From Wolfiporia cocos (taxonomy: Eukaryota; Basidiomycota; Agaricomycetes; Polyporales; Phaeolaceae): DNA of 64,000 nucleotides. Below, piece after piece: positions 11,078-56,958 of this stretch. The position numbers were made by a program, and so were the translations under genes. Below the pieces are notes generated by a model. That model did not search any database, had not been told where the DNA came from, and saw only the letters and a list, made by a program, of their open reading frames with translations. The stretch lies in NCBI GenBank assembly GCA_029448655.1, contig JACCLO010000013.1:248001-312000 (forward strand). The letters run 5' to 3'. Each line of letters begins with the position of its first letter. Within the stretch, counting starts at the first letter, position 1.

Positions 11078-11078
11078 G

Positions 11079-11089: not shown

Positions 11090-11123
11090 TATCACACCCT
11101 CACCTACCACGGTGTAAGGGCAC

Positions 11124-12938: not shown

Positions 12939-13027
12939 GAGGGAAGCCCACGGTCTTACCCTCCGAGAAAGCAGCGCATGTAATTACCTCGTTCGAGAAG
13001 AATCGATCCCTCTTCATCCCGGTAATC

Positions 13028-18079: not shown

Positions 18080-18085
18080 GGAGGG
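18078..18085 (+). other. Polypurine tract of Gypsy copy 1
   Basis: AGGGAGGG lies five bases before the 3' LTR and overlaps the pol stop codon (18077-18079). This is the expected site for plus-strand DNA priming. Confidence 0.75.
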
Positions 18086-18090
18086 TCTGA

Positions 18091-20387: not shown

Positions 20388-21095
20388 TGTTATGGGTCGA
20401 ATACCCGTTCGTATATTCGAGTCGTGAATATAGATCGTTCTTCTGCACGTGGGCGTATAGCCGTATGCAAGGCAAATGCTCGTTAGATGCCTTCAGGTCC
20501 TAGGTGAAGTTCCTAGGAGATCGTATAATATCCAATCCGCGTTAGAGGATATAATCTGTTCAGGTGCGAGTCTAGTAGAATATAAGACTCGCCTAAGTCC
20601 GAGAAGTCAGCGTGTACTTCGAGGACTTAGTCGTTCGGTTGCTCGAGTGAGAAATACTGAGCGTAGTTTCCTACGTTTGAGAACGAGTATAAGACTTCTT
20701 GTTTATACAACAAGGTCGAGCTGAAGAGCTTCGACAGTAGGTACATTAGTTTATATACTACGTTGGGTTTCAGGGGTCAAGTCTGTCCCAGATGTCACCG
20801 ATACTATCTACGCTATAGTACCAAACGTTTGATAGGTATGTAGTGATATATCTGAGACGATAGATAGGAATGATGGCGGTTGAACGCCATCTATCAGTTA
20901 ACAAATGATTAACACGAAACGGTGGCAGAGTTGGATCTGCCAAAGATGAAACGTGCCCTATAGACTAGTACCACTGGGGATGCGCCCAGTAGAGTCACGA
21001 GTGGCCAGGGAAGTTGGTTGCGCAACAAGTCCCTGTATCGTATTCGCCTAGTGGTGAGTTCTGTCGATATTCGAAAAATCAAAATAACCGTGACA
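20388..21095 (-). repeat. 3' LTR of Gypsy copy 2
   Basis: Reverse-complement LTR, TGTTATGG at the left end and CCGTGACA at the right. The polypurine tract of this copy lies next to it at 21101-21108 (CCCTCCCT on the plus strand). Confidence 0.95.
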
Positions 21096-21106
21096 TCAGA
21101 CCCTCC

Positions 21107-26158: not shown

Positions 26159-26247
26159 GATTACCGGGATGAAGAGGGATCGATTCTTCTCGAACGAGGT
26201 AATTACATGCGCTGCTTTCTCGGAGGGTAAGACCGTGGGCTTCCCTC

Positions 26248-28722
26248 CTAGGCAAAATCCTGTTCTTCTACGAGCTGTGCTAGGAGCTCGGGGTTCTTGG
26301 CTTTCAGAGCCCTAATTGCTGTGACCGCCCTGTTGGCGGTGATGTATTCAGTCTCTTCCTCAGAGACTTCTTCAATGCGAGCTTCTTGTTCGGCTTCTTC
26401 TTCTTCGGTTTTTCGAGTAGTCCGCCTAGGGCGGGCTGGCTTCCTCGGCCTCTTCGGGCAGTCTCGCGACATATGTCCTGGTTGATGACAGGTGAAGCAT
26501 TTTCCCTTCTTGATGTGATCGTCCCTTTCCTGTGTGGTCATTCGATCTACATCCATCGCATTCGGATCTTTCGGTGCGGTTGTCTGTGGAGCACTAGTGC
26601 GTCCGTTATTCTGGTTCGAGGCTTGCCAAGCCTTTTTCTTGACAAACGGTTTATCCCGTTTCAAGAATATCTTGTACGTATTTTCATAGTACGAGGCAGC
26701 GGACTGCCATTCATCAATGGTCGCTGGTAGCGGCCGAACGCCGATGATGTATCGGGTCGTGTGTTCGGGTAACCCTTTCTCGAAGAGGGTTATGAGCAAC
26801 GCGTTTCCGTCCGCGCTGTATCGATTGTACTGGGCCTTTCCGGCCAAGTTGTTGAACTCGGTGATATAATCATCGATGTCCTTCCTGTCCTGGGTTACGT
26901 CCAGGATTTTCTTCCGCGCCTTCTGTACTTCTTCGATGGCTCCAAAGGCTTTCTGGAAGTCTGCATCAAACTGTGCAAGACTAGGCGGGAAGAATCGTTT
27001 TGTCTGGGGGTTCGTATAAACCCGGTGATAATTCTGTTTCCATTGGCCCGTTTTCCCCTTGTTCGAAATATAAGAGAGGATAAAGATCACTCTCTGAACG
27101 TCGTTCTGAAATGACGTTTCGTACATCGTAAACCAGGAATTGCACTGGTTTATGAAGTTCTGCATGTCGGATCGTTCCCCGTCGAATACGTCTGGGGGAT
27201 TGATCTTTATCATCGGGGGTCGGTAGTACGGGTTCGGTGCCGGAGGTTGAGGCTGCGGCGCATTTGGTGGTGGAGGCCCTCCTGGGGGTCCTCCTCCTCC
27301 CGGGTATCCTCCACCCGGGTTTCCTGGATTTCCTCCGGGGTTCCCTGGGTTCCCTCCAGGGTTTCCTCCTCCGGGGTTCGCGGGGATTCCTCCTCCGAGT
27401 CCGAAGTTTCCTCCCAGTCCTCCTCCGCTTGTACCTGTGGAGGTTCGTCCAAATAGGCCTGAAGGCCATGTTCCTGGGTTTGTCGTTCCCATTCCTCCGC
27501 TTGGGCTAGTCCAAGACGGATTTCCTCCGCTACCCATTCCGGGTGCGTTCTGTGGGGGGTTTCCAAAGAGGTCTGTTCCTCCAGCCATAGGCCCAATCCC
27601 ACTCTGCGCAAAAGCAGATACAAATCCTGGAGGGTCCTGTCCTCCGGTCTGGCTGTTATCTGTTCCTGTAAAGTTTCCAAGATTTCTCCCATCATCTCCG
27701 ATGCGCTCAATTCCTGCCATTCCTGTGGCGCCCGAAGGCTGATTCGTATTTCCATCGGCATCGGAGGTTCTGTTGATGGTTTCGGTTTCGTTTTCGGTCA
27801 ACTGTCACAAGAATTTCCCTGCATTTACTGCAATTTTCCTGGGATTAATAGCAATTATCTACGCAATACGTCCTATAACCCGTCATAACCCGGCACCTAA
27901 CAAATAGTTAGATTCATGCCGATTGATGGCCGCGTTATCTCCCATGACGATGGTATCTAATCACGGATCTGTTCCCGTGCATATCACAAGCTTAGCCGCT
28001 AGCCAATCGGACATCTCGTCCGTATCACATCAGCACCACAACGTCAGCGGACCGCGCATAATGTCACGCGTCGGTTTACTAAGACATAGCGCCCTTAACG
28101 CTACTGGGCGACGCACAACGCCGATAACCTATATCCCGGTTGATCGGCATATACCATTACCGCGTATTACTCAGTCCCATAATGACAGGGGTCCTGTAGT
28201 AGAATACGTACCGAAGTAGATTATGTAATAAGGCTGTTAGGGGTCTTATAATACATGTATATATACTGGTTCGCTAAGTCGTTAGAGACTTAGCTCTATT
28301 CATAAACAATTGCCTACGGGTTAACCACCCAACCGCCTAGCCTGCTGCTTACTCGCTTACTCCTAAGTTCTCGCCTATCGACGACTACAGAAGACGCTTA
28401 CGCTGTACAAGAAGCCTCTAAGCCGAAGCATAGAGTGAGTAGTAGAGTCTTGTGTCATCAACGTCGCGGTTGACATCGGAGGGATTTCTCCGAATCGTTC
28501 GAACGCTTCACGCGTTATTTCCCAAGCGGTCGTTCCTGCGGAGGGGTATACTTGTACCCACTTCGATGCCCTATCTTCTCTGGGGATGACAACAATTCCT
28601 CCGCGGTTACGGAAGGCTCCAATGGTGTCAGTCCACTCGTATTGGTTGAGTCTGTAGACTCCCTGAATGTCCTCGGGCAAGAGTTCAATCAGTCGTGCTG
28701 GGAATTCTGGTCCAAATATCAT
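26248..28722 (-). pseudogene. gag: gag of Gypsy copy 2, split by a solo LTR
   Basis: The N-terminal part (28722-28463, MIFGPEFPARL to MSTATL) and the main part (27802-26248, from ENETETINRTS to the stop) are separated by an LTR at 27803-28457 plus its duplicated TCAAC. The interruption falls at about codon 88 and adds an early stop. Capsid-like domain and zinc knuckle remain in the downstream part, which could start at the Met at 27801, but the normal Gag start is cut off. Confidence 0.9.
27803..28457 (+). mobile_element. Solo LTR of a second LTR family inside gag of copy 2
   Basis: 655 bp with ends TGTCACAAGA and TCTTGTGTCA, flanked by TCAAC at 27798-27802 and 28458-28462. A TATA-like run (catgtatatatactgg, near 28255) sets the likely orientation as plus. 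No internal region is present, so an element inserted and then lost its interior by LTR-LTR recombination. Apart from the terminal TGTCAC it does not resemble the host Gypsy LTR. Confidence 0.85.
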
Positions 28723-28756
28723 GTGCCCTTACACCGTGGTAGGTGAGGGTGTGATA

Positions 28757-28767
28757 AGCTCGACCTT
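28757..28767 (-). other. Self-priming PBS of Gypsy copy 2
   Basis: On the minus strand AAGGTCGAGCT lies one base from the 5' LTR, as in copy 1, and is again complementary to the LTR segment next to the TATA box. Confidence 0.7.
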
Positions 28768-28768
28768 C

Positions 28769-29476
28769 TGTTATGGGTCGAATACCCGTTCGTATATTCG
28801 AGTCGTGAATATAGATCGTTCTTCTGCACGTGGGCGTATAGCCGTATGCAAGGCAAATGCTCGTTAGATGCCTTCAGGTCCTAGGTGAAGTTCCTAGGAG
28901 ATCGTATAATATCCAATCCGCGTTAGAGGATATAATCTGTTCAGGTGCGAGTCTAGTAGAATATAAGACTCGCCTAAGTCCGAGAAGTCAGCGTGTACTT
29001 CGAGGACTTAGTCGTTCGGTTGCTCGAGTGAGAAATACTGAGCGTAGTTTCCTACGTTTGAGAACGAGTATAAGACTTCTTGTTTATACAACAAGGTCGA
29101 GCTGAAGAGCTTCGACAGTAGGTACATTAGTTTATATACTACGTTGGGTTTCAGGGGTCAAGTCTGTCCCAGATGTCACCGATACTATCTACGCTATAGT
29201 ACCAAACGTTTGATAGGTATGTAGTGATATATCTGAGACGATAGATAGGAATGATGGCGGTTGAACGCCATCTATCAGTTAACAAATGATTAACACGAAA
29301 CGGTGGCAGAGTTGGATCTGCCAAAGATGAAACGTGCCCTATAGACTAGTACCACTGGGGATGCGCCCAGTAGAGTCACGAGTGGCCAGGGAAGTTGGTT
29401 GCGCAACAAGTCCCTGTATCGTATTCGCCTAGTGGTGAGTTCTGTCGATATTCGAAAAATCAAAATAACCGTGACA
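28769..29476 (-). repeat. 5' LTR of Gypsy copy 2
   Basis: 708-bp reverse-complement LTR directly followed by the duplicated target CACAG. It reads the same as 20388-21095 by eye. Confidence 0.95.
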
Positions 29477-34129: not shown

Positions 34130-35966
34130 ATGGCCCCAGTAAAGAACGGCCGTCTTGTCTTCAACGAGATCCCCACGGGTGCGTGGACCTGCCGGAGTGT
34201 GCGGACGTGTGACCGACGCGCGCGCAGGGCTGCCCGAGCCGGGCAAGACGACGGTGTACGACGAATCGCAGACGATCGACCTCGAGAGCGTCCCGCTGAA
34301 CGGCGGCATCCTCGTCAAGACCCTCGTGCTCTCCATCGACCCGTACCTCCGCGGCCGCATGCGCGACGCGAGCATCAAGAACTACTCGGTGCGTCTCGCG
34401 CTCACCAGCGGAACCTCTGCTGACACCGCGCTTGTGTAGCCCGCTTTCACCATTGGCGAGCCGTGAGTCGCACTGACATCGTGCTTTATTGCGTGCTTAC
34501 GGATGTCTGACGTTCAGCCTGAACAACTATGGCGTCGGCCTCGTCCTCCGCTCGGAGCATGCCTCTTTCAAGGCCGGCGACCATGTCTATGGCACGCACC
34601 GTACGTCATTCTCTCAATAACCTTCTTCCCGCTTATAACCTTCTCCTCCCTCCCTTCTATTCTGCTACGAATCCCAACCTTCGCCGATCGGCCCCGCGAT
34701 CGATATCCGACTTCCAATTCGACGGCAATCCCACCCTGCCGCGCGCCCGATCGCCAACCTAAACTAAACCGAAAACCCAAACGGGCACCATTCCATTCCT
34801 GCGCCACTCACTCGGCGCTGCACGTGTCGCGCTGGGCGCATATGCCTGGAACTGTGATTGTTTTGCGTGCGCCACTGCGTCTCGCGCATGCACCACGCGG
34901 TCGGCGCGCGCAGCCTTCCAGCAATACTTCGTCGCGGCGCCCGCGGACGCGGAGAAGCTCACCGTGCTCAAGAACGAGGAGGGCCTCCCGTGGAGCGTGT
35001 ACGTCGGCGTGTGCGGCATGCCCGGTGCGTGTTCCCTCTTCTGCTTCCCATCGCTGGCCTCGTCCGTGTTTACTGACCCGCCCCGCCCCGCTCCGTACAC
35101 AGGTCAGACCGCGCACCATGCCTGGCGCGAGTACTCGCAGGCTAAGCCCGTACGCCCACTTTCTTCCTCCATGCGCTCACCACGCGCCGCTGACGACGTA
35201 TGCAGGGTGAGACCGTCTTCGTCACCGCAGGCGCAGGCCCCGTCGGCGCGTAAGTACCCGTCCTCGTCTCCCCCTCTCCCCTCCCTGCCCTCGATTTCCC
35301 GCCTGGACAGATGCTGACCCTGCGCAGGACGGTCATCCAGATCGCGAAGCAGCAGGGCCTGAAGGTGATTGCGTCCGCGGGGAGCGAGGAAAAGGTCGCG
35401 TTCATCAAGAGCCTCGGTGCAGACGTCGCGTTCAACTACAAGACGGAGCGCACGCGGGACGTGCTCGCGCGCGCGGGGCCAATCGACATGTGCGTGTGCG
35501 CGCTTTGCGTTCGTGCAGCGGGCTGATGTGTGCGCGGCAGATACTGGGACAACGTCGGCGGGGAGACGCTCGAGGCCGCGATCCAGGCGGCGTCGGTCGG
35601 CGCGCGATTCATCGTGCGTCTTTCCCTTCGTGATACCCCCGAGCGCTGACGCGGACTTCTGATTTCGATTTCCTTTCGTAGGAATGCGGCATGATCAGCG
35701 CGTACAACGGCGAGGAGCCGTACTTCGTGAAGAACCTGCCGCTGATCGTGGGCAAGCAGCTCAAGCTCAGTGGGTTCATCGTCATGTGGCTGCACGAGAA
35801 GCACCTCGCGCACTTCTACGAAACACTCCCGCTGCTGGTGAAGGAGGGGAAGATCAAGTACACCGAGGACGCCACACACGGGCTCGAGCGGGCGGGCCAC
35901 GCGATCGTTGACGTGCAGACCGGGCGGAATAAGGGAAAGAGCGTCATCATTGTGTCAGAGGAGTGA
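34130..35966 (+). CDS. NADPH-dependent alkenal/double-bond reductase (MDR family), unit A, intact
   Basis: Ten exons can be joined with GT-AG introns: 34130-34178, 34228-34388, 34440-34462, 34518-34600, 34914-35024, 35103-35149, 35206-35249, 35328-35489, 35541-35613, 35682-35966. They total 1038 nt (345 aa), and every junction keeps frame. SIDPYLRGRM (52-61) is the signature of the zinc-free LTB4 12-hydroxydehydrogenase/2-alkenal reductase group. AGAGPVGA (166-173) is the Rossmann nucleotide loop, and YWDNVGGE begins at 228. Such cytosolic enzymes reduce alpha,beta-unsaturated aldehydes and ketones with NADPH. The true substrate is unknown. It heads a tandem array in which the later copies are broken. 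Confidence 0.9.
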
Positions 35967-37283
35967 GTGGTACGTTGTTGGTTGCGGGGACGCGATTGAT
36001 GCGTGTGTGTTTGTTCACGCAGTGCTGGGCCTGCGAGGTTGTAGTTGCCCGTTGTATGCGACGCCGCTTTGCGTCGGTGGCGTTCAATTAGAGGTAGTGT
36101 TCTTCGTTAGCTCTACATCGTGTAAAACAGCTTCCTGCAGCAATCTCATCGATGTCACGCTCTCTCTTCTGCTCGGTGTACTGCGCTGTTCGGCTCTCCC
36201 CTCCCCTAGCGCACTGCGCGGTCCAGGCGTTCGGAGGACTAACAGAATAGTGTGGCGTCCTGATCTCAGGTACCGTCGCTGGTTGGACAAGGCCGCTTCT
36301 GTGTGCGCTTTGAGGCGAGCACGCGCTCGTCCTAGGATCGTGCGGTATTGTCGCGTGCCGGCGCTTACACATCACGCACTGACACTAATCAGCCAAGTCT
36401 TTCCCTTAGATCCTGGTGATTCAAGTACAGTCTTCCGATGCTGTCACTCGCCAAGATATAGCAACATATGACGCCATCCTTCCAGGTACACCTCCGTGGC
36501 CATCCATTTCGCCATGGCAGCAGCTTCGTCGGCCATTGACATCTGCAAACGCGAATGGCGGACAGCCCGCCTTTCACGCGTTGAGCCATGCGCACAATTG
36601 ACGAGCCTCCGATGTGTTTGACAGACTGCTATTCGTCTGTCATGACGGTTGCCAACAGATCCCTCCGTGAGGGAAGGACACATCCCACGACACCACCGCC
36701 ATTCGAGCGAGTATCCACCTGGATTTGAGGCACAACCGCAGCCACCTTCCACAGACACCGGGAGTCCTTATCAGTTTGCTTGAACCTTCTCTATCGCTCA
36801 CTTCTGTGGGAATTGCAAGCCGAAAGAAGTTCTCTTTTGCATAAAACTGAATCTAGATCTTAAAATGGCTCACGCTCCGACAAAAAGTGGCCGGGAGCGC
36901 TCTGGACATCGGATACTGATGCGCGCTCAATCCATGAAATACAATTCGCATACTGTTATTTGATTTTCGCGATTGCTGGCTACGAAGCTTCATCATACAC
37001 CTTCAGGAAGCAGCTGGGAACACTAGACGGGAGACGTCTCACTATGAATGTCATTTCTGTCTGGCTAGATTATCGTTACCTAAGGGACATCCAAGGAGCC
37101 CTTCTGATTATTTCTTAATCTAGATTCGAATTTGGAATATGCGACTATTTCAGGGCTGTAAGCATCTTCAGGTGTCTTCAGTGTCATGGCTGGTGTCCAA
37201 GACCCTGACCTTTGGATTCCAGACACCGATTCTCTCCTGCTATTGTATGCGCATGAGGCTCGTCCCAGGTGTTCAGGAGAGCA
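35967..37283. other. Intergenic DNA shared by units A, B and C
   Basis: No gene seen. Blocks such as gatgctgtcactcgccaag (near 36437) recur in unit B (near 42717), showing the spacer was duplicated with the genes. Confidence 0.5.
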
Positions 37284-37357: not shown

Positions 37358-39090
37358 ATGTCTTCCAAGGGATCTACGGCTCTGCAGGAATATGCTCAGC
37401 TGTGAGTATCATATCAACTACAGCCGTCCGGGGAAATCATGTGCACACGTCAATTCTCAGTACTGCGTCGGCGTACATGTACTCCAGCATTGCGGGTGAG
37501 TTTTCCAATTGACCATTGCTACAATTATGCATGTGATAATTGCGGGATACATAGCACTCCTCATATACGATTATTTCCTCACCCTCGGAAGAGAGATCAA
37601 CACCATATGGGAAGGGCGCAGTTTGCGATCTGTTATCTTCTTTGCCGCTCGTTTCGTTTCATTTTGTATCGTCGTTTTGTATCTTGTGTCATTGGGAACC
37701 TTTCCAATTCAAGCGGTACGTTGCCTTTAACATTTTCGTCCTTGTGCAAGACAGTCTGACCGCTTCATAATTCGTGATTTAGAGGTATCTATGCACATTT
37801 AGATTTCAATGAATGAGGCTATTTTCCCGTTCCCATAACAGCGAGCCACTCAACATATTCTCATCGGGTGTGGGCATTGCTTCTATTCTATTGTGGGCAG
37901 GTGAGTTCCCGAGATATTGGGTATTACGTATACAACCATACACGTACCGAATATTTAGTGTTCTCTGCGTTGAGAATATATGCCGTATGCAATCGGAGCT
38001 ATATATGGGCAACGGTGACATTGATATTAGGACTGCTACCGATGGTCTACGAATTGGTGAAGTTTGGCCTTTGCCAGATTAATACTGATATACTAAATTG
38101 AAAATGTGCAGGCTGTAGATGCCTCTACAATTATGGTTTCCATGGAGGACTATTTGGTACAAGAATCAAGTTTGTCTCTCAGGACGATACTTGCGTACGT
38201 GTACTGTCTTAATTTCCAAAGGAGGTTGCAACTCATGATTGTGCGTAGATGTGAGCAGCTAGTACAGTACAGCGCTCGATCAAATGTTTAATCTCTTGTC
38301 CCCTGCAGGGAACTGCCTTGGAACTGCGGGAGGGATGGTATCGGACATAATCGTAGCATTCTGGACGTGGCGAAGAGTCCGCGCAATTGATCCTTTCGTG
38401 ATCCAGTACGGCACGGGTCGCTCAGTATCACTGATATTGCTTAGAGACGGTGAGTTTATGACATCCTTTCCTTGTAGCAGTGTGTTGTTTAGCACACTTT
38501 TGCTCCGTTGTCTATCAGGAACTCTGTATGCAATGTGAGCTTGCTCTATACTTGCATATTTCAAAGTCATGATTGCTGTAGGATACTCTTGGCAATGAAC
38601 ACGGTAAATCGTTTTATATGGGTGCTCAAGGTATGTCTTCTGACGCGTCGAAGTCCGTTTTGTACGTCGACTAATAGATGTGATCCCGCGATAGTCTTAT
38701 GTCTACTTCACCCACATATCAATCTCGTTGGTAGTCTTCTTACATTTTTTGATTGTGACGCTGACGTACAAAAGTATCACGCCCATTTTTATATATCGCA
38801 CTATGTTGAATCTGCGCGAGTGCTGCTTCAATCCAGATGACCCCTCTGGCATAGTGTCAGCAACCAGGTCGAGAGAATGCACGACGTTGCGCTTCCAATC
38901 ACAACTTGAGTCGCGTCCCGATATGCAGACTATGGAGAACGTGGATAGTGCTCAGGTCACGGACGCTCAGGCGTTCAGCTTGGCCAACAAAGACAATCGG
39001 GATGGAACAATTGATGTTGAGAGAAGTGATGGAGACCTGGAGGATGACATTGACCTAGACTCCGAGAGTTTGGGAGATGATGGGATCTAA
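37358..39090 (+). CDS. DUF6533 multi-pass membrane protein, unit A
   Basis: Exons: 37358-37401, 37461-37495, 37555-37715, micro-exon 37783-37784, 37842-37900, 37959-38056, 38112-38194, micro-exon 38249-38250, 38309-38449, 38519-38534, 38582-38630, 38695-39090. Total 1086 nt, 361 aa. ALLIYDYFLTLGREINTIWE is the DUF6533 signature. About seven hydrophobic helices follow (VIFFAARFVSFCIVVLYLV, VFSALRIYAVC, MVSDIIVAFW, VVFLHFLIVTLTY), then MLNLRECC and an acidic cytosolic-type tail. Without the two 2-nt exons the frame breaks. The family has no known function; a membrane receptor or sensor is sometimes supposed. It may be co-inherited with the reductase gene as a unit. Confidence 0.78.
37783..37784 (+). 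other. Candidate 2-nt micro-exon 1 (AG)
   Basis: The sequence reads tttag|AG|gtatct between two introns of 67 and 57 bp. It joins GCG and C GAG so that the frame reads A-S-E. Equivalent dinucleotides stand at 44067-44068 (unit B), 51483-51484 (unit C) and 55686-55687 (unit D, GA). Confidence 0.6.
38249..38250 (+). other. Candidate 2-nt micro-exon 2 (AT)
   Basis: The sequence reads gcgtag|AT|gtgagc between introns of 54 and 58 bp. It restores the frame between exon 6 (ends GC) and exon 7 (starts GG AAC). Equivalent AT dinucleotides stand at 44524-44525 (unit B) and 56149-56150 (unit D). Confidence 0.6.
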
Positions 39091-39734: not shown

Positions 39735-41566
39735 CCCCTTTTCATCATTGGCGATCAGTGGGTCGCACTGACATCGATTAAGACTGATGCAATCTGGGGT
39801 CTGGAGCTGTTGCGATGGCGAGCAGCGGCCGCACGGAGGTCCGAGCATGCAAGCTAGCGGGTAGTAAGTTTCGCTAGAAGTGTATATAAGCGGAGCACGA
39901 GCAGAGTGACTCGTCGCCAGTTTGTTAACCCACTTACGTTCACTATCCTATACCGGGAATTTGCACCTGCGGCCACCACACATACTTCATTGCGTGCTTA
40001 CGGACGTCTGACGTAGTCTAAACAACTACGTACGGCGTCGGTCTCGTCCTCCGCTCCAAGCACACGTCTTTCAAGCGGGCGACCATGTCTACGGCGCGCA
40101 CCGTACGTCATCCTCTCAATGGCTTTCTTCCCGCTAACCTTCCTTGCGTACCCCCAACGTTAACGTTCGCCGATCGAGGACGCGATCGACATCCAACATC
40201 AAATTCGGCGCCAATCCAACACTATCGCGCGTCCGATCGCTGAACTCAAACGAAACTCAAACGCGATGCCACCATTCCACTCTTACACCATTCTGCCCGG
40301 CACGTTTTTCATTCTGAGTCTTACATGCATGCCTGGGATTTTATCTGTGCGTCGCCGCGTCTCGCACCACGCATACGCGCCATTGACGACGTGGGCGGAT
40401 GCGTGCAGCCTCTCAGCAATACTTCGTCGCGGTGATCGCGCTGCCCGCGGACACGGAAGCTCACCGTGCTGAAGAACGAGGAGGGCCTCCAGTGGAGCGT
40501 GTACGTCGATGTGTGCAACATGACGGGTGCGTGTTCCCTACGCAGCCATCGACGCCTCCCCAGCGCTGGCTTGAGCATGTTGCTCGCCTTGGCTTGGCAG
40601 CCGCCGACCGAGGCCAGTGCGCCGGGCCCGGCTGCGCGTCGCCGCCCACGTCCCGTCGTGTAGCCCGCGTCGCGATTCAGCCTCTTTCCGTCTCACTTTC
40701 CGCACTCGCGTTCGCTGACCCGCCCCTCCCCGTACATAGGCTAGACCGCGCATCATGCCTGGCACAAGTACTCGCAGGCTAAGCCTGTATATCCCTCCCC
40801 TCTCCTGTACTCACCACGCGCCGCTGACGACGCACGCAGGGCGAGTCCGTCTTCGTCACCGCAGGCGCAGGCCCCGTCGGCGCGTAAGTACCCACCCCCC
40901 TCCTGTACACCGCGCCCCGTCCTGTCCTGTCCTTGTCTCCCCCTCCTCTGTCCCCCATCCCGCCATCGCTTTCCGCCCAGACAGATCCTAACGGAAAAGG
41001 TCGCGTTGATCAAGAGCCTCGGCGCGGACGTCGCGTTCAACTACAAGACAGAGCGCACACGGGACGCGCTCGCGGGCGCGGGGCCATTCGACATGTGCGT
41101 TCGCGCATTTTGCGTGCTCGTGGGCAGGGCTGATAAGTGCGCGGAAGATACTGGACAAAATCGGCGGGGAGATGCTCGACGCGGCGTCGGTCGGCACGCA
41201 GTTCATCGTGCGTCCCTCCCCTCTCGCTATCCCGCTCGAGCACTGGAAGTTATGTCCTCCCCCTCCTCCTCCGTCCCGCAGGAATGCAGCATGGTCAGTG
41301 CGTACAACGGCAAGGAGCCCTACCACGTGAAGAACCTGCTGCTCATCGTGGGCAAGCAGCTCAAGATCAGCGGGTTCATCGTCATGTGGCTGCACGAGAG
41401 CCACCTCGCGCACTTCTACGAGACGTTCTCGCGGCTGGTGAAGGAGGGAAAGATCAAGTACACCGAGGACGCCACGCGCGGGCTTGAGCGCGCGGGTCAT
41501 GCGATCGTGGACGTGCAGATGGGGAGGAATACGGGGAAGAGCGTCATGATTGTGTCGGAGGAGTGA
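39735..41566 (+). pseudogene. MDR reductase pseudogene, unit B
   Basis: Equivalent to exons 3-10 of the intact gene. Exons 1-2 are absent because the duplication began at exon 3. The exon 4 start is garbled (acgtag then tctaaacaactacg). Exon 8 has lost its first 60 or so bases, so gccccgtcggcgcgtaagt is followed by an exon that begins near acggaaaaggtcgcg. The last exon (41282-41566, from ECSMVSAYNGKEP to the stop) is intact and well conserved, so decay is fairly recent. No functional enzyme can be made. Confidence 0.85.
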
Positions 41567-41709
41567 GTCGCGCGTTGTTCTTGTTGTTGGTTGCAGGGAT
41601 GCGGTTGATGCATGTGTGATTGTTCACGCAGTGCTTGGCCGGCGAGGTTGTACTTGACCGTTGGATGCTCATTCGACGGCGTTCAATAAGAGGCAGTGTG
41701 TCCTGTGTT

Positions 41710-43643: not shown

Positions 43644-46061
43644 ATGTCCTCCAAAGAATTTACATCCCTGAAGGAATATAATGAGATGTGAGCATTTTGT
43701 GAGCTACAGCCTTCCGGAGGAGTAATGCGCACACTGCCATTTTCAGTCACGAGACGACGTACATATACTCCAGCATGGCAGGTGAGTTTTCAAATAGACA
43801 AGTTGCCACAATTCTGCTGTCAATAGCTGAACACACAGCACTCCTCATATACGAATACTTCCTCATCCTCGGACGAGAGATCAATACCATGTGGGAAATG
43901 CCCAGTCTGCGGTCCGCTATTTTCTTTGCCGCTCGTTTCGTTTCATTTTGCATTGCCATTTCGTATCTTTTGTTATTCGGAATATATACGATTCAAGCGG
44001 TACGTTGAATTTAACATTTTCGTTCCTGTGCAAGACAGTCTGATCGCTTGATAATTCGTTGTCCAGAGGTACTTATGCACATTTAGATTTCAACAATTGA
44101 AGTTATTTTGACCTTCCACAACAGCGAGGCAATCACCATATTCTCATCGTGTGTGACCATGGCTTCTATTCTATTGTGGGCAGATGAGTTCCCGAGATAT
44201 TTGACATTGCGCATACAATCATACACGTACCGAATGTTTAGTGTTCTCTGCGTTGAGAATATATGCCGTATGCAATCGAAGCTATATATGGGCAATGGTG
44301 ACATTGATATTAGGGATGGTTTACGAATTGGTGAAGCTTAGCCTTTTCCAGATTAATATTGATATACTAAACTTATGATGCGCAGGCTTTAGATGCCTCT
44401 ATAATTATGGTTTCCCTAGGGTACATTTCGATACAAGGAATACATTTGTCTGACAGGACGCGACTTGCGTGCGTGTGCTGTGTTAGTGTCCCAAACGAGA
44501 TCGCAACTCATGATTGTGTGTAGATGTGAGCAGCTATAGTACAGCGCTCAATCAAACGTTGTAAAGGCTTAATCTCTTGTCCCCTGCAGTGGACTACCTT
44601 GGAACTGCGGGAGTTATGGTATCGGACCTAATCGTAGCATTCTGGACGTGGAGAAAAGTCCGCGCAATCGACCCTTTCGTGATCCAGCACGGATCGGGTC
44701 GCTCAGTTGCGCTGATATTACTTAGAGACGGTGAGTTTGTGACATTCTTTCCTTGTAGCAGTGTACTTAGCACACTTCTGCCCTGTCGTCTATCAGGAAC
44801 TCTGTATGCAATGTGAGCTTGTTCTATACTTGCATATCTCAAGCTCACGACTGCTGTAGGCTACTCTTTGCAATGAACACTGCAAACCTGTTTTTGATGG
44901 GGCTCACGGTATGTACTCCTAACGCATCGAAGTCCGTTCTGAACTAATAGATGTGATCCTGCGGTAGCCTTATGTCTACCTCACCGACATAACGACCTCG
45001 TTAGTAGTCTTCTTACATTTTTGATTGCGACGCTAATGTACGATAGTATCACGCCCATTTTCATATGTCGTACTATGTTGAATCTGCGCGAATGCTGCTT
45101 CGATCCCGATGACCCCTCTGGCATAGAAGCAGCAACCAGGTCGAGAGCACGCACGACGTTGCACTTCCAATCACAACTTGGGTCGCGTCCCGATATGCAG
45201 GCTATGGAGAACGTGGATAGTGCTCAGGTCACGGACGCTCAAGCGTTCAGCTTGGCCAACAAAGACAATCGGGATGGAACAGTTGATGTTGAGAGAAGTG
45301 GTGGAGACCTGGAGGTAAGGCTCCAACCATATAATGTATATACCATGTATACATGGTTTTATATATATACTATATACATATATTTACATGTGGCCAAGTA
45401 CATGGTATATACATGGTATATTATATGGTATATGGTTGTTGTGAATGCATTCATATTAGACCCTCAGTTGACAATTTGAATAGTGTATCTGAACTAGTTA
45501 TGTGTCTTACAGAATGTACAGTGCAATGGTGATATGAGATTTAGACAATCTGGTGGCTGCTGCACAAATGCAAAGATGTCAGGACATAATTCACATGCTT
45601 GGCTTACCCCCTCATTTGGCAGAAGGCAAGATCAGATTTATGTTTATGCTATATATCATCCCACATAATGATTGCATCATGCATTAGACTCATGCATACA
45701 AGTTTCCCACCACCTCACACATTGTGCACAATTCCTAAGCCATTCCTGCTACTAGTGTGGCTGCTGAATGTTGAACACCGATTTTTTCCTCACATCAGCC
45801 AAGTGCTGATACCTGCAGCATGTCATTAAAGGAAGAGACAATCTCCATAGCTATATGGGCAAAGCAATGGCTATGCCAAGATGTCTAAAAAATCTACCAT
45901 CCAAAAACCATGTAAACCATGTATATACTATGTATATACTATGTATATACCATATACCATATATTTACCGATTTTCTGTACATGTATATTATATGGTTGG
46001 AGCCTTACCTGGAGGATGACATTGACCTAGACTCCGAGAGTTTGGGAGATGATGGGATCTA
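43644..46061 (+). pseudogene. DUF6533 membrane protein copy, unit B, probably inactive
   Basis: Exons 1-3 (43644-43687, 43747-43781, 43839-43999) have the same lengths as in unit A and are intact, including the DUF6533 segment. Exon 4 (from 44125) ends GGGCAG|ATGAGT, so the GT donor kept in units A and C is now AT. Splicing there should fail, and reading on gives a stop at 44341. Exon 5 has lost nine bases in frame. The last exon is interrupted by a MITE (45316-46007). The tail after it (46015-46061, to GDDGI and stop) is preserved. Confidence 0.75.
45316..46007. mobile_element. TAAGG-type MITE copy 1 (692 bp) in the last exon of the unit B DUF6533 gene
   Basis: Ends read TAAGGCTCCAACCATATAAT inward on both sides. 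CCTGGAGG is duplicated at 45308-45315 and 46008-46015. An 8-bp duplication and short inverted ends fit the hAT superfamily. The interior is AT-rich with tatatacatgg repeats and no transposase. Unit A has the uninterrupted site (gacctggaggatgac). The last duplicated G plus TAAGG makes a GTAAGG donor, and the AG of the second duplication could act as acceptor. Confidence 0.85.
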
Positions 46062-46693
46062 ATTCTTGACATTGTGAGTATGCAGCAGGTTATGCGATGA
46101 ACAGAATTCTTATCTGACGGTCCTTACTTTGAGCTTGATATTTCACTACTATCAAGAAGCTTCCGCTCGGCCGTCGCCGATTCGCATCTAATGCGGCAGT
46201 GTGTCTCTGCAGTATTGTTTGTATCACAGTGTGAGTAACACCTGCATTGTTGCGCACGTGCGCCAAGATATGCTTGTAATTATCTCATCAAAAATGTATT
46301 GTCTGCTCAATACCCTCACTTAGAGTGTACAGTGATCACCAGTGGAACGAACATCAGGGAAAATCTTCCTTGACATGACTTAACCCATCTCTGGTTTCGG
46401 GCTATCACCAGTAACCTGGAAAACATAGGCCATTTCGAATTCTGATCCTGTCAACAAAGGAGGTTCTTCCTGATAAACGCTGCTTTCTTTCATTCGCTTC
46501 TACTTCCTAGGCATAACGCAGGAATCATCACGATGCCCCACTCGTTCTGTCCCCTGCCTAAATTTAGGGGGGTCTCAACCTTCACGCAGCGTTCCCATTC
46601 GCTGACAGGAAATCAGTTTCAAAGCCTGGGCTACAGTATCGTTCAAACTTCAATCCGGAGCAGCGTTCTGTTGTTGACACCATGCTTCTATAG

Positions 46694-49341
46694 CCCCTTT
46701 TCATCATTGGCGATCCGCGAGTCGCACTGACATCGATTCATACTGTTGTAATCTGGGGTTTGTGGCCGTTGCGATGGCGACCAGCGGCCGCGCGGAGGCC
46801 CGAGCATGCAAGCTAATAGCGGGTAGCTAGTTTCGCCGGAAGTGTATACAAGCGGAGCGCGAGTAGAGTGGCTCGTCGCCAGTTTGTTAACCCACTTACG
46901 TTCGACTATCCTATACCGGAGATCCGCACCTGCGGCCACGGAATCTCCACACATACGTTGTTGCGTGCTTACGGACGTCTGACGCAGTCTAAAAAACTAC
47001 GGCGTCGGTCTCGTTCTCCGTTCCAAGCACGCCTCTTTCAAGTAAGGCTCCAACCATATAATATATATACCATGTATACATGGTTTTATATATATACTAT
47101 ATACATGTATTTACACATGGCCGAGTACATGGTATATACATGGTATATTATATAGTATATGGTTGTTGTGAATGCATCCATATTAGACCCTCAAATTGTT
47201 GTTTTGAATATGTACTTGAGCTAGTTATGTGTCTTACAGATTGTATGGTGCAGTGGCAATATGAGATTTGGACAATCTGCTGGCCATTGCGCAAATGCAA
47301 GGATGTTAAGTTGTAATTCACACACTCTGCTTACCCTCTCATTTGGCAGAAGGTGAAATCAGATTTATGTTTATGCTGTATATCATCCCACATAGTGATT
47401 GCATCATGCATTTGACTCATGTGTAAAAGTTTCCCATCATCTCACACATTGTGCACAATTTTAAAGCCATTCCAGCTACTAGTGGGGCTGTTAACACCAA
47501 TTTCTGACTTGCATCAGCCAAGTGCTGATACATGTGGCATGTTGTTGAAGGAGGAGACAATCTCCATAGCCATATGGGCAAGGCAATGGCTATGTCAAGA
47601 TGTCTGAAAAATCTACCATCTGAAAACCATGTAAACCATGTATATACCATGTATATACCATGTATATACCATATACCATATATTTACTGATTTCCTGTAC
47701 ATGTATATTATATGGTTGGAGCCTTACTTTCAAGGCGAGCGACCATGTCTACAGCGCGCACCGTACGTCATAATGACTTCTTCCCGTACGGCGCTCTTCT
47801 CAATGATTTTCTTCCCGCTAACCTTCCTTGCGTATTTCATGAATCCCCACGTTCGCTGATCGACGACGCGATCGACATCCACCATCAAATTCGGCGCCAA
47901 TCCAACTAGTACTCTAGATCTGTCGCGCGTCCGATCGCTCTACTAATACGAAAACTCAAACCAGATGCCACCATTCCACTCTTACACCTGCCCGGCATGT
48001 ATTGCATTTTGGGCCTTAGTTGCACACCCAGCTGCAGATTGTGTTCTGTGCGCCGCCGCATCTCGCACCACGCACACGCGCTATTGGGGCGGACGCGTGC
48101 AGCCTCTCGACAGCAATACTTCGTCGCGGCGGTCGCGCTGCCCGCGGCCGCGGAGAAGCTCACCGTGCTGAAGAACGAGGAGGGCCTCCAGTGGAGCGTA
48201 TACGTCGACGTGTGCAACATGACGGGTGCGTGTTCCCTACGCAGCCATCGACGCCTCCCCAGCGCTGGCTTGAGCATGTTGCTCGCCTTGGCTTGGCAGC
48301 CGTCGACCGATACGCCAGTGCACCGGGCTTGGCTGCGCGTTATTGCCACCGTCCCGCCGTGTAGCCAGCGTCACGACCCAGCTTCTTGTTCTGTCTTGCT
48401 TTCCTCGCTCGCGTTCGCTGACCCGCCCCTCCCCGTACACAGGCCAGACCGCGCACCACGCCTGGCGCGGGTACTCACAGGCTAAGCCAATGTGTCCCTG
48501 CCCTCTCCTACGTTCATCAAGCGCCGCTGATCATGACGAGTCACGCAGGGCGAGACCGTCTTCGTCACCGTAGGCGCAGGCCCCGTCGGCGCGTAAGTAC
48601 CTCCTGCATGCCGTGCCCCGTCTACCCGTCCTCGTCTCTTCCTCCCCTGCCCCCCATCCCACCCTCGTTTCCCGCCTGGACAGATGCTAACCCCGCGCAG
48701 GGCGGTCATCCAGATCGCGGAGCAGCAGGGTCTGAAGGTGATCGCGTGCGCGGGGAGCGAGGAAAAGGTCGCGTTCATCAAGAGCTTCGGCGCGGACGTC
48801 GCGTTCAACTACAAGACGGGGCGCACACGGGACGTGCTCGCGCGCGCGGGGCCAATCGACATGTGCGTGTGCGCGGCGCGCGCTGAGTGTGCGGCGGGCT
48901 GATAAGTGCGCGCAGATACTGGGACAGCGTCGGCGGGGAGACGCTCGAGGCGGCGATCGAGGCCGCGTCGGTGGGTGCGCGGTTCATCGTGCGTCTCTCC
49001 CTTCTCATGATACCGTTGAGCGCTGACGCGGACTTGTGTCCTCCTCCGGTCCGCAGGAATGCAGCATGATCAGCGCGTACAACGGCGAGGAGCCGTACCA
49101 CGTGAAGAACCTGCTCCTCATCGCGGGCAAGCAGCTCAAGCTCAGCGGGTTTATCGTCATGTAGATGCATGAGAAGCACCTCGTACACTTCTACGAGACG
49201 TTCCCGCGGCTGGTGAAAGAAGGGAAGATCAAGTATAGCGAGGACGCCACGCGGGGGCTCGAGCGGGCGGGCCATGCGATCGTGGACGTGCAGACGGGGC
49301 GGAATACGAGGAAGAGCGTCATGATTGTGTCGGAGGAGTGA
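46694..49341 (+). pseudogene. MDR reductase pseudogene, unit C
   Basis: Equivalent to exons 3-10, again without exons 1-2. Exon 4 is interrupted by a MITE (47043-47726). The exon 3 donor has changed from GTGAGT to GCGAGT. In the last exon the Trp codon of IVMWLHE is TAG (49162-49164). Exon 8 (about 48702-48861) is almost perfect (AGSEEKVAFIKSFGADVAFN), so this copy decayed by a few discrete hits. Confidence 0.85.
47043..47726. mobile_element. TAAGG-type MITE copy 2 (684 bp) in the unit C MDR pseudogene
   Basis: Same ends as copy 1, with CTTTCAAG duplicated at 47035-47042 and 47727-47734. About 90% alike to copy 1 by eye across the AT-rich interior. It sits inside MDR exon 4 (after GCCTCTTTCAAG). 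Confidence 0.85.
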
Positions 49342-50332
49342 GTCGCGCATTGTTCTTGTTGCTGGTTGCAGGGATGCGGTTGATGCTTGTGTGATTGTTC
49401 ATGCAGTGTTGGGCCGGCGAGGTTGTAGTTGCCCGCTGGATGCGACGCCACTGCGCGTCGATGGCGTTTAATCAGAGGCAGTGTTCAATATTACTTCTGC
49501 ATCCTGTCAAAACAGCCTCCGGCAGCAGTCTCATCGATGTCTCGCTCGCTCTCCTGCTCGGTCTCCTGGGCTGCTCGGTTTCCCTTCCCCTGCCACGCTG
49601 CGCGTTCCAGGTATTCGTAGGACTAACAGAATATTGTAGCGCTCTGGGTGGCAATCGACATCCGCTTACGGTCACAGTCAGTGGCGCCCTGATCCCAGGT
49701 CCCGTTGCTGGCTGGACAAGGCCGCTTATGCGTGCGTCTTGTCGCCAGCGCGCGCTGATCCGAGGAACGCATACTATAGCTGTAGCCCCGTGTCGGCGCT
49801 TGCATACCACACGCTAACACTAACCATCAAAGTCTTTCTCTTAGACCCTGATGATTCGGCTACGATTTTGCGCCGCAGGATGTCAGAACGAGGGGTTTCC
49901 AGGCTTCCATTTTCAGAGGGGTCCATCCGCATGCCACATCAGACCCTACAGCTCGCTAAATTATAGCGCTGCAAAATGTTATCATTCCGCACCTCCATAG
50001 CCATCCATTTCACTGTGGCTACAGCTTCGTCGGCCATCGGTATCCGCGGACGCGGATCGCAAATTGTCCTGCCTTCAACGCGTGCAATCGGGCCGCAATC
50101 CACGGGCCTCCGCTACGCTCTGAAACGTGCTGTTCGTCAGTCAGGATGGCTACTAACAGATCCCTCAGTAAACTCAGTAAAGGAGAAGCACCATCGTGCA
50201 TCCCGCCATTTGATTGCCAGGCATGCTCACGCGTTGTGGCGCAGCGCTGAGCCGCCATACCATCCGAGCGCGAACACCGCCCACGGATACGAGGCACGAT
50301 CACAGCCGCGACATGTGGAGTCCTTGTCAATC
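49342..50332. other. Intergenic DNA of unit C
   Basis: Aligns with the spacers of units A and B. At the position of the unit B GC-rich MITE the DNA is continuous (gaggcagtgttcaatattacttctg). No gene seen. Confidence 0.5.
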
Positions 50333-51071: not shown

Positions 51072-52455
51072 ATATCTTCCGGGAAATCCACAATCCTAGA
51101 GGAATATTATTACGCGTGAGTGTCATGCGAGCTACAGCCTTCCGGGGAGGTAATGCATACTTCCATTTGCAGGCTTGTGACGACGTACATGCGCTTCAGC
51201 ATGGCAGATAAGCGCCCCAATAGACAGCGGCTATGATTCTGCATGTGAATACACAGCACTCACCATACACGATATTTCCTCATGCTCGGACGAGAGATCA
51301 ATCCTATGTGGGAAGGGCGCATTTTGCGATCCGCTATTTATTTTACCGCTCGTTTCGTTTCGTTTGCACAATCGTTTCGTATCTTTGCTCATTGGGAGCC
51401 TTTAAAATTCAGGTGGTACGTTAACTTGAACATTTTCGTCCTTGTGCAAGACAGTCTGATCGCTTGATAATTGGTGATTTAGAGGTATCTGCGCACATTT
51501 AGATTTCAACTAATGAGGCTAATTTCCGTTCCACAACAGCGAAGTACTCACCATATTCACATCGTGTGTGATGATGACTTCTATTCTATTGTGGGCAGGT
51601 GAATTCCCGAATTATTTGGCATTGCGCATACAATCATACACTTACCGAATGTTTAGTGTTCTCTGCGTTGAGAATATATGCCGTATGCAATCGGAGCTAT
51701 ACATGGGCAACGGTGACATTGATATTAGGACTGATGCCGATGGTTTACGACTTGGTGAAGCTCAGCCTTTGCCAAATTAGTACTGATATACTAAATTTAC
51801 GAGGTCCAGGCTATAATCGCCTCTATAATCATGATTCCCATGGAGTGCATCCTGGTACAAGAATTGAGCACACTTTTGCTCCGTCGTCTACCAGGAAGTC
51901 TTTATGCAATGTGAGCTTGCTCTATAACTGTCTATCTCAAGCTCGTGATTGCTGTAGGCTACTCTTAGCAATGAACACGGGAAACCTGCTGCTATGGGTG
52001 CTCGACGTGTGTATCTTTAACGCATCGAAGTCCGTCTTGTACGTTACTGATATACGTGATCCTTCGGTAGTCTGAGATTTACGTCATCGACATATCAACC
52101 TCGTCGGTGGTCTATTTACATTTTCCATCCTGACGTTAATATACGATAGGATCACTGCCATTCTGCTATGTCGAATCTGCGCGAATGCTGCTTCGATCCC
52201 AATGACCCCTCTGGCATAGAAGCAGCAACCAGATCGAGAGCGCGCACGACGTTGCACTTGCGTTCACAGCGCGGGTCGCGTCCCGATATGCAGGCTATAG
52301 ATATAATGGATAGTGCTCAGGACATTCACGCTCAGTCATTGAGCTTGGCCAACCTAGACAATCGGGATGGAGCAGATAATACTAAAGGAGGTGATGGAGA
52401 TCCGGAGAATGACATTGACCTGGACTACGAAAGTTTGGGAGATGATGATATCTGA
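51072..52455 (+). pseudogene. DUF6533 membrane protein pseudogene, unit C
   Basis: The start codon is ATA (51072-51074) where units A and B have ATG. Exon 3 has lost one T (CACGATATTTCC against unit A TACGATTATTTCC), shifting frame inside the DUF6533 segment. A deletion joins exon 6 to intron 7 (acaagaattg|agcacactttt), removing micro-exon 2 and exon 7. Micro-exon 1 (51483-51484) and its splice signals remain. The acidic tail is kept to the stop at 52455. Confidence 0.85.
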
Positions 52456-53639: not shown

Positions 53640-53960
53640 TGGGGACACGTGGATGGAACACGCACCGGGCATGCCGTACACGCCGACGTACACGCTGCAC
53701 GGGAGGCACTCCTCGTTCGCGTCCGCGGGTGGGGCGACGAAGTATTGCCGGAAGGCTGCGCGTGTCAACCGCGTGGTGCGTGTGCGAGACGCAGCGGAGC
53801 ATTCACAATAACTTTCCCCAGTTCAGGGCGTGCATTTGCGCCCGACGCGACACGTGCCGGGCCGAGTGAGTAACGCAGGAACGGAATGGTGATGTTTCCG
53901 TATGGGTTAGTCTAGTTTGGCGATCGGGCGCGCGACAGGGTTGAATATACAGGGGGCTAC
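53640..53960 (-). pseudogene. MDR reductase fragment, unit D, inverted (intron 4 and exon 5)
   Basis: On the minus strand the fragment reads intron 4 sequence, then an exon 5 equivalent (FRQYFVAPPADANEE ... SVYVGVYGMPG). It lies in the opposite orientation to the other MDR copies and has internal deletions (AEKLTVLKNE is missing). Confidence 0.75.
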
Positions 53961-53997
53961 ACAAGCGTGGTGTCGGCAGGGCTTCCAGTGATGAGTG

Positions 53998-54075
53998 CGA
54001 CCGGGACAACGTCGGCGGGGAGACGCTCGACGCGGCAATCGACGCGGCGTTGGTCGGCACACTGTTCATCGTACG
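53998..54075 (+). pseudogene. MDR reductase fragment, unit D (exon 9)
   Basis: DNVGGETLDAAIDAALVGTLFI matches MDR exon 9 and ends in a GTACGT donor at the expected place. It is on the plus strand, so the MDR gene of unit D has been broken and partly inverted. Confidence 0.7.
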
Positions 54076-55270: not shown

Positions 55271-56958
55271 ATGTCGCGGACAGAAGCTACGAGTTTTACC
55301 AAATATTATCAGGAGTGAGTCCATTTTTACTTGTATTAGAGAACTGTCGACATTCATGCGTACTTGCAGCATTGTCACGCATTATATGGCCGCTGGCATG
55401 GCGGGTGCGTGTACCTTTCAAGCATTGCTGTTAACGATGATGCAACCAGACTACATCATTTTAGCACTTCTCATCTATGACCACGTTCTTATTATTGGGA
55501 GAGAGGTCAATGTGACTGGGCGAGGCAGTAATGCGCGATCTGTGCTCTTTTTTGCCAATCGCTGTGTGATGCTAGCCATGGTCATATCACTGCTTTGTCA
55601 ACTGGGAAGTTACCAAGCGAAGACTGTACGTAAATTGTATTTCCACTAATTTCGCTAACTCACGTCTGTCATACTCCATGAGTAGGAGTAGCTATTGCAA
55701 TCTGTCATGCATAACTGAAGTTAACCTTTCATGATTCCACCCACAGTGAAGCACTAGCTATTTTCTACTCGTGTGTCAACATCGCACCCGGTCTCATATG
55801 GACGGGTACGTCCTCCCTATTATATTGGGTTGTGCGACTGAGGCTATTGGCGAGCCAGTATTCTCAACGCTTCGACTTTACGCCGTGTGTCGTGGGAAGT
55901 TGCTGCTACCAACGATGACACTGCTCCTTGGAGTAGCGTCAGCGTCCACCAATTTGGTAGCTTCAATCTGCTCAAGTCTTGCGCTTGCGCACGCACTAAT
56001 TTATTGACCAGGCATTCTATTCCACCACAAGGTTGGTTGCCAACATGGGTCATTCTTTGGCTCAAATATCAAGTCTCTCCGATTCAGTGCAACTTGGGTG
56101 CGTTAATTTTGATGGCCAGATGGCTTTCCGGCTGAAAATCATGTATAGATGTAAGCATCGTTATGGGTCAAAATGCTCATTAACTCTGAATGAATTACAG
56201 TTCAGTACTTTGCGATTGTCAGCCCAATGCTGTCCGAGATAATTGCTATCATAACCATATGGCGCGAAATAGAGTTTCGTGAGGAACACTGCACGTCCAG
56301 GGTTTCTTTTGCATCAGTCTTGGTGAGAGATGGTCCGTCACACAAACTCAAGTTGAAATTCCTTGTATACCTTATTCGAGCATTAACATGTATAGGTACC
56401 GCTTCCTTTATGTGAGCGGGATGTTCATACACATCAACACATTTGGTGATGCTAATCGGCACAGATTGCTGCTTACGGTTAGCATTATTAACTTGGCACT
56501 GCTCGGGTTGAAGGAATGTGCTGGTACTTCTGTTTCGTCTTATGTGAACCTGACCTTTCGACAAGCAGACGAACATACAATTCGCGGTTGTGTACAATGC
56601 GTGAGTTCTACAAACTCTCCTTTACGAAGTGACGCATATTCGCTATAGACTTTTGCCCGTACTAATGTCCCGCACGATGCTCAATCTGCGCGAATGTTGC
56701 TTCAATCCTGGTGATCTCTCAGGAGTCGAGGTACAGGATAGAACTACGACGGAAGATTCTCTCCGATTCAGGTCTCAACCATCATTCCCTGCTAATGAAG
56801 TCACAGAATTGGCAGATGACGCGCAGACATCCCATCCTCGACTGGCGAGCGCGAGTATCATCAGTGAGCACAACATCAACGACATAGAGATACAAGCTCG
56901 GGATGCAGTCGATGATATTTGTCAGGAACAAAGGAGCTGGTGGGACGATGAAAGCTAA
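55271..56958 (+). CDS. DUF6533 multi-pass membrane protein, unit D
   Basis: Exon lengths repeat those of unit A: 55271-55314 (44), 55370-55404 (35), 55465-55625 (161), micro-exon 55686-55687, 55747-55805 (59), 55859-55956 (98), 56012-56097, micro-exon 56149-56150, 56201-56332, 56396-56411 (16), then from 56465. The protein is much more diverged. It keeps ALLIYDHVLIIGREVN (DUF6533), VFSTLRLYAVC, SEIIAIITIW and MLNLRECCFN near the C-terminus. The donor of the exon from 56465 (GTATGT in unit A) is GAATGT here, and I could not find a splice path that keeps frame into the last exon (about 56654-56958). The gene is either rearranged at its 3' end or recently damaged. Confidence 0.65.

What the first reader, a model, noticed from the sequence alone, without database searches (positions are those of the whole stretch)
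37716..38308. Two phase-restoring 2-nt micro-exons conserved in DUF6533 genes
In units A, B and D, exons of identical or in-phase length can only be joined in frame if a 2-nt exon is added at two places. Each sits between two ordinary 50-67 bp introns: tttag|AG|gtatct (B gtccag|AG|gtactt; D gagtag|GA|gtagct) and gtag|AT|gtgagc (D tatag|AT|gtaagc). Unit D is highly diverged at protein level, yet keeps both. Exons this short are very rare and easily missed by gene finders.
Basis: partly seen in the sequence, partly recalled or inferred. Interest (0 to 1): 0.8.

Follow-up and report, generated by a model that had tools for sequence, protein, structure and literature searches.

The report
Paired two-letter exons in fungal receptors
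A large family of fungal membrane proteins appears to be built with two exons only two DNA letters long, kept in distantly related genes whose introns have otherwise changed beyond recognition, so automatic annotation easily gets these genes wrong.

Summary
Unit A has 2-nt exons at 37783-37784 (AG) and 38249-38250 (AT), each between ordinary GT-AG introns; B and D match. A and D pass Pfam's DUF6533 cut-off. A and B differ equally at all codon positions and about equally in exons and introns, so B adds no evidence of constraint. Distant paralogs do: of 44 loci examined, 32 non-redundant ones could be anchored at site 2, and 31 have AG-N2-GT there (shuffled mean 4.5, max 11), while no other spacing 0-12 exceeds its shuffled maximum, in DNA that is otherwise 27% identical. 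At site 1 it is 24 of 26. Annotated Wolfiporia cocos proteins read through site 2 exactly in 4 of 5 testable orthologs; at site 1 only 1 of 5 fits. A probably transcript-derived protein aligns without a gap across both sites. Best reading: two ancestral, constitutively spliced 2-nt exons; site 1 is less secure, because in-frame single-intron alternatives exist in several genes. Precedents are 1-nt exons in plants and Fusarium. No RNA of this organism was available.

The parts
37358..39090 (+). Unit A, DUF6533 gene, 12 exons, intact frame of 361 aa plus stop
   Evidence: Pfam DUF6533 35.6 bits against cut-off 24.1
37716..37782 (+). intron (67 nt) before micro-exon 1 of A, phase 0
37783..37784 (+). 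micro-exon 1 of A, AG; with the next base C it gives a Ser codon
   Evidence: family scan k=2 in 24 of 26
37785..37841 (+). intron (57 nt) after micro-exon 1 of A, phase 2
38195..38248 (+). intron (54 nt) before micro-exon 2 of A, phase 2
38249..38250 (+). micro-exon 2 of A, AT; last base of one codon and first base of the next
   Evidence: family scan k=2 in 31 of 32
38251..38308 (+). intron (58 nt) after micro-exon 2 of A, phase 1
43644..46062 (+). Unit B, broken duplicate of A: donor after exon 5 reads AT at 44184-44185; last exon interrupted by a terminal-repeat element
44067..44068 (+). micro-exon 1 of B, AG
44524..44525 (+). micro-exon 2 of B, AT
51483..51484 (+). AG of micro-exon 1 in unit C, a broken copy (start codon lost, no stretch matching micro-exon 2)
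55271..56958 (+). Unit D, diverged DUF6533 gene (38% identical to A over shared profile columns)
55686..55687 (+). micro-exon 1 of D, GA; with the next base T an Asp codon
56149..56150 (+). micro-exon 2 of D, AT

Best explanation
Both dinucleotides are true, constitutively spliced 2-nt exons, inherited from an ancestor of the DUF6533 genes sampled here. Each lies between two ordinary GT-AG introns of about 55 nt. The spliceosome would recognise each short intron as a unit (intron definition) and remove the two one after the other, because 2 nt leave no room for two assemblies at once; the second intron then meets an exon of normal length. Micro-exon 1 usually supplies the AG of a Ser codon, often just before a conserved Cys. 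Micro-exon 2 supplies the last base of one codon and the first of the next, ahead of a transmembrane helix. Joining across either without it shifts the frame. Shown from sequence: letters, phases, recurrence in distant paralogs, gapless agreement with related proteins at site 2. Inferred: inclusion in RNA of this organism, order of removal, constitutive use.
For: Anchored scan at site 2: k=2 in 31 of 32, strict YAG/GTR 30 of 32 (shuffled mean 1.3), no other k from 0 to 12 above its shuffled maximum; surrounding 100 nt 27% identical; 11 different dinucleotides in 31 loci, so not a fixed motif. Site 1: 24 of 26, strict 17 of 26 (shuffled mean 1.3, max 4), Ser in 16 of 24. Introns beside the micro-exons are of ordinary size, while the whole span (median 113.5 nt, 24 cases) would be an outlier as one intron (107 ordinary introns: median 54, 5-95% 47-67, one of 95 nt or more). 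Micro-exon 2 is kept (AA) in L044 and L049, which differ 60/28/143 by codon position in 227 codons, i.e. under constraint. W. cocos MD-104 proteins P0007, P0010, P0014, P0051 read through site 2 exactly. L053 has no introns at site 1 and keeps frame with the same 62-nt distance to the next donor. P0008 aligns gaplessly across both sites.
Against: No RNA. Forbidding exons under 6 nt costs the aligner more than 5 units in 17 of 25 loci at site 2 but only 7 of 25 at site 1, and nothing in 6 and 12 of 25, so phase alone does not settle single genes. At site 1 only 1 of 5 W. cocos models (P0052) fits; P0007 and P0051 carry extra residues from an upstream acceptor, P0014 and P0031 lack residues. At site 2 P0052 has three extra residues. 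L048 lacks the site-2 pattern, L050 and L051 the site-1 pattern. Donors after the micro-exons score slightly lower than ordinary ones (1.85 against 2.28).
Confidence: 0.88

Rival explanations
1. There is one longer intron of about 95-130 nt at each place, and frame is kept by another acceptor or donor; the AG-NN-GT inside it is incidental or a relic.
For: Such paths exist in several genes at site 1: CGAG in A and B, an upstream acceptor used in the W. cocos models P0051 and P0007, and no cost in 12 of 25 loci when short exons are forbidden.
Against: Does not explain why AG-N2-GT, and no other spacing, recurs in 31 of 32 and 24 of 26 loci in unconserved DNA; single introns would be size outliers; W. 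cocos models at site 2 need the two letters.
Confidence: 0.08
2. AG-NN-GT is a recursive (zero-length) splice point or part of a nested intron (stwintron) that leaves no exon.
For: Micro-exon 1 mostly reads agAGgt, which contains AG|GT; k=0 occurs in 18 of 26 loci there.
Against: The flanking phases (0/2 and 2/1) need two more bases; at site 2 k=0 occurs in 3 of 32 loci, at background; the dinucleotide varies.
Confidence: 0.02
3. The window units are dead copies, so their junctions need not be in frame and the pattern there has no meaning.
For: B and C are broken; A-B differences are spread evenly over codon positions.
Against: A has an intact 361-aa frame; A-D differences are 112/74/137 by codon position in 221 codons, a trace of past selection; the pattern holds in constrained paralogs elsewhere (L044, L049).
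Confidence: 0.02

Closest known systems
1-nt exon of CYP621A P450 genes in Fusarium (PMC12940212; abstract, introduction and discussion read)
   Same: Ultra-short exon between two canonical fungal introns, inferred from phase, conserved across orthologs, supported by an intronless relative
   Different: 1 nt, one per gene, ascomycete, 24 genes, confirmed there by SRA reads; here 2 nt, two per gene, many paralogs in one basidiomycete genome, no reads
1-nt exons of APC11 and VPS55 in plants (PMC4674806 and PMC8831610; passages read)
   Same: Constitutive or widely conserved exons below 3 nt, missed by annotation; intronless copies carry the base inside a larger exon; sequential removal of the two introns proposed
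   Different: Plants, 1 nt, RT-PCR or RNA-seq proof
Micro-exons of P450 genes in Phanerochaete chrysosporium (PMC1184071; passages read)
   Same: Basidiomycete family with many short introns and tiny exons
   Different: Shortest exon reported there is 6 bp
Snowball protein SNB1 of Coprinopsis cinerea (PMC10949477; passages read)
   Same: DUF6533 protein with seven predicted transmembrane helices
   Different: In that text 'intron' does not occur and 'exon' only in the guide-RNA methods; its gene structure was not examined by me
Stwintrons (search listing only)
   Same: Two adjacent introns of about normal size taken out in succession
   Different: In a stwintron one intron interrupts a splice site of the other and no exon remains; here two letters must remain

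Membership tests
Ultra-short constitutive micro-exon | Canonical GT-AG introns of usual size on both sides | tested here: met
   24 modelled cases: acceptor before it TAG 12, CAG 12; donor GT 24 of 24; lengths 41-78 nt
Ultra-short constitutive micro-exon | Needed to keep the reading frame | tested here: inconclusive
   Yes in D and at site 2 of most loci; single-intron in-frame alternatives exist at site 1 in A, B and several paralogs
Ultra-short constitutive micro-exon | Conserved in homologs beyond chance | tested here: met
   31 of 32 and 24 of 26 non-redundant anchored loci
Ultra-short constitutive micro-exon | Present in spliced RNA | not testable with these tools
   No RNA of this organism; P0008 is only probably transcript-derived
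DUF6533 (PF20151) | Profile score above Pfam's curated cut-off | tested here: met
   A 35.6 bits, D 27.3 bits, cut-off 24.1
DUF6533 (PF20151) | Seven transmembrane helices | tested here: inconclusive
   Model of the homolog P0009 shows seven long helices (one of them in two pieces), mean pLDDT 76.8; A and D themselves were not folded
Stwintron | Both introns removed with nothing left between them | tested here: not met
   Phases 0/2 and 2/1 require two more bases
Recursive splice site | AG directly followed by GT (zero-length exon) | tested here: inconclusive
   Site 2: 3 of 32 loci, background; site 1: 18 of 26, because agAGgt contains it

The most novel reading that the evidence does not exclude
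Two 2-nt exons were fixed before the DUF6533 receptor-like family expanded and are carried by most of its members today, possibly well over a hundred genes in this genome (150 profile hits listed, only 44 loci examined) and their counterparts across Polyporales. That would be the largest set of exons this short that I know of, often mis-modelled in databases, and skipping either would act as a built-in frame switch.
Probability: 0.5. Interest if true: 0.75.

Novelty: new member of a known kind. Interest (0 to 1): 0.62.

Why it matters
Exons of 1-3 nt are at the limit of what splicing can do; the 1-nt cases that I saw in print lie in APC11, VPS55 and CYP621A. A pair of 2-nt exons in many paralogs of one genome gives dozens of natural variants in which to ask how the spliceosome handles two letters, which intron leaves first and how often it fails. 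It also means that gene models of DUF6533, the family of the developmental regulator SNB1, need rechecking: 4 of 5 W. cocos models that cover site 1 lack residues there or carry extra ones relative to the micro-exon reading.

Tried and rejected
Unit B as evidence: rejected, no constraint visible between A and B. Phase argument from A alone: too weak at site 1. Codon test on micro-exon 2 (aliphatic or Phe residue, 24 of 31 observed, 24.0 expected): uninformative, because the second codon base already decides it. Control scan upstream of five other acceptors of the same genes: k=2 in 0-2 loci of 22-31, but k=0 is raised at two of them (11 of 26, 13 of 31) and k=5 at one (18 of 30), since those windows reach into conserved exons; a raised k alone is therefore not proof, and the case at site 2 rests also on the unconserved surroundings. 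Fold: model of P0009; the 50 rows shown by Foldseek are all GPCRs by title, but TM-scores are only 0.30-0.48.

Rows dropped before counting. Site 2: 9 of 44 loci could not be anchored (C, L039, L040, L041, L060, L065, L067, L074, L078); of the 35 anchored, 34 have k=2; three near-duplicates were removed (32). Site 1: 13 of 44 not anchored (B, L039, L040, L041, L043, L048, L053, L060, L061, L065, L067, L069, L073); of the 31 anchored, 29 have k=2; five near-duplicates removed (26). The site-1 anchor accepts only exon lengths of phase 2 and takes its donor from a model that allowed micro-exons, so it is less neutral than site 2; some of its matches have weak donors (strict 17 of 26). At site 2, L043 and L047 were anchored by a model that allowed micro-exons; without them 29 of 30. 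The costs are for any exon under 6 nt, not only the 2-nt ones (L042 used a 4-nt one at site 1). For L071 at site 1 the aligner chose AT and I chose AG because it gives the Ser seen in homologs; both are gapless against P0008.

Full report
What is there. The window lies in a 64.4-Mb fungal assembly; a DUF6533 search listed 150 scored profile matches there, a lower bound. Six annotated proteins of Wolfiporia cocos MD-104 match paralogs of this genome, at 82-96% identity for five and 76% with long gaps for one, so the source is Wolfiporia-like, in Polyporales; the species was not given. Four DUF6533 units (A-D) lie in one cluster. A splice-aware aligner that I wrote (protein or profile against DNA, GT/GC-AG introns, no lower limit on exon length) gives unit A exons of 44,35,161,2,59,98,83,2,141,16,49,393 nt and unit D 44,35,161,2,59,98,86,2,132,16 and further exons that differ from A's. 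A and D pass the Pfam cut-off for DUF6533.

A and B are 86% identical in exons and 84% in introns, and differ 50/47/50 at codon positions 1/2/3. B has a mutated donor and an insertion; C has lost its start codon and the stretch with micro-exon 2. These copies may share the micro-exons by descent alone. At site 1 of A a longer single intron ending at CGAG would also keep frame. The evidence has to come from elsewhere.

Family test at site 2. I took 40 further loci from the genome (20 chosen from the matches to A, 20 from the top of the list). For 35 of 44 loci the acceptor of the downstream exon (123-150 nt, mostly 141 or 144, 120 in L047; typically ..ARTCLIVSDAIVI..TW) was fixed: 33 from downstream sequence only, L043 and L047 from a full model. 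In the 42-80 nt upstream I asked for AG-N(k)-GT. In 32 non-redundant loci k=2 is found in 31 (Markov-shuffled mean 4.5, maximum 11); with YAG and GTR, 30 of 32 against a mean of 1.3. No other k from 0 to 12 exceeds its shuffled maximum, though k=10 and k=11 come close (11 and 9 of 32). The 100 nt before the acceptor are 27% identical in right-aligned comparison, about what unrelated DNA gives. The two letters take eleven different values in 31 loci.

Family test at site 1. The same kind of scan gives k=2 in 24 of 26 non-redundant loci (shuffled mean 4.4, max 9), strict 17 of 26 (mean 1.3, max 4); k=0 is also high (18 of 26), because the usual form agAGgt contains it. With the next exon's first base the micro-exon codes Ser in 16 of 24, and the next residue is Cys in 12 of 24. 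In an alignment of 21 annotated homologs a Cys (C108 of P0009) is invariant, and P0009 reads LSCEAT there.

Independent witnesses. (a) L053 has no introns in this part: one 292-nt exon reads through site 1 in frame (..ACG GCC TGC..), and by my count of its letters it is 62 nt from the last base of GCC to the next donor, the usual length of the exon after micro-exon 1. (b) Of six W. cocos orthologs, five cover site 2: four read through it without gap or insertion (VYNR-LL, AYNR-VI, FAR-LV, ISK-LG); P0052 has three more residues that fit an 11-nt exon. Five cover site 1: P0052 has the Ser and the length of the micro-exon reading, P0051 and P0007 have extra residues that fit an upstream acceptor, P0014 and P0031 lack residues (the site-1 comparison uses letters read by hand). 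How those models were made I do not know. (c) P0008 is an uninterrupted 331-aa reading frame from a 1283-nt contig; A has 11 introns, so P0008 is probably from a transcript. Its last residues IGRAHV look like read-through of a sequencing adapter (recalled, not tested). It aligns to the micro-exon model of L071 over 277 columns, 51% identical, with its only gap (5) far downstream; both sites are gapless.

Against. Forbidding exons under 6 nt costs the aligner more than 5 units in 17 of 25 loci at site 2 and 7 of 25 at site 1; it costs nothing in 6 and 12. So phase alone does not settle single genes, above all at site 1, and the clade L050/L054/L055 may have another structure there. L048 lacks the site-2 pattern. 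No RNA of this organism was available.

How it most likely works. 107 ordinary introns at seven conserved positions have a median of 54 nt (5-95%: 47-67). The introns beside the micro-exons are of the same size, with slightly lower donor scores. Recognition across short introns, one after the other, needs no exon length; [quoted passage not shown] I infer the same here; the order is unknown. The homolog P0009 is predicted to have seven helices with a hairpin between helices 4 and 5; seven helices are also reported for SNB1 (PMC10949477, passages). Foldseek's listed solved matches are GPCRs with low TM-scores.

Novelty. Searches for micro-exon with basidiomycete, microexon with fungi and nucleotide, microexons with Basidiomycota, six phrases for a 2-nt exon, Wolfiporia with microexon, micro-exon with Agaricomycetes, and DUF6533 listed no report of this by title and abstract; the library is open-access only, and one search listed 20 of 49 papers. 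[quoted passage not shown] So the kind is known; a 2-nt pair across a large fungal family appears new. My confidence for site 2 alone would be about 0.95, for site 1 about 0.85.

Noticed in passing
10370-18801 (+) and 20387-29476 (-): Two nearly identical LTR-type retroelements in opposite orientation (99.96% over 7420 nt; terminal repeats of about 710 nt); each has a 1734-aa frame with protease, dUTPase-like, reverse transcriptase and integrase-like stretches (domain names recalled from sequence, not searched). The second copy holds about 650 nt more.
   Followed up: partly
45315-46008 and 47042-47727: Two copies of an element of about 690 nt with ends GTAAGGCTCCAACCATATA / inverse and 6-nt target duplications (CTGGAG, TTTCAA). 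The first interrupts the last exon of unit B.
   Followed up: partly
34131-35967, about 39990-41570, 46980-49400, 53640-54070: A zinc-type dehydrogenase-like gene and three degraded copies alternate with the DUF6533 units, as if a two-gene block had been duplicated several times (read; family name recalled).
   Followed up: no
L053:711-1002: A paralog without introns in its N-terminal part, perhaps intron loss through a reverse-transcribed message; it keeps micro-exon 2 as CT.
   Followed up: partly
38519-38534 and the matching place in L042-L077: A third short exon of 16 nt is also very stable: it recurs in nearly every modelled paralog.
   Followed up: no
P0052 against L049: The W. cocos model suggests an 11-nt exon from an acceptor 9 nt upstream of the micro-exon-2 acceptor; the two tandem acceptors could give alternative in-frame products.
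   Followed up: no
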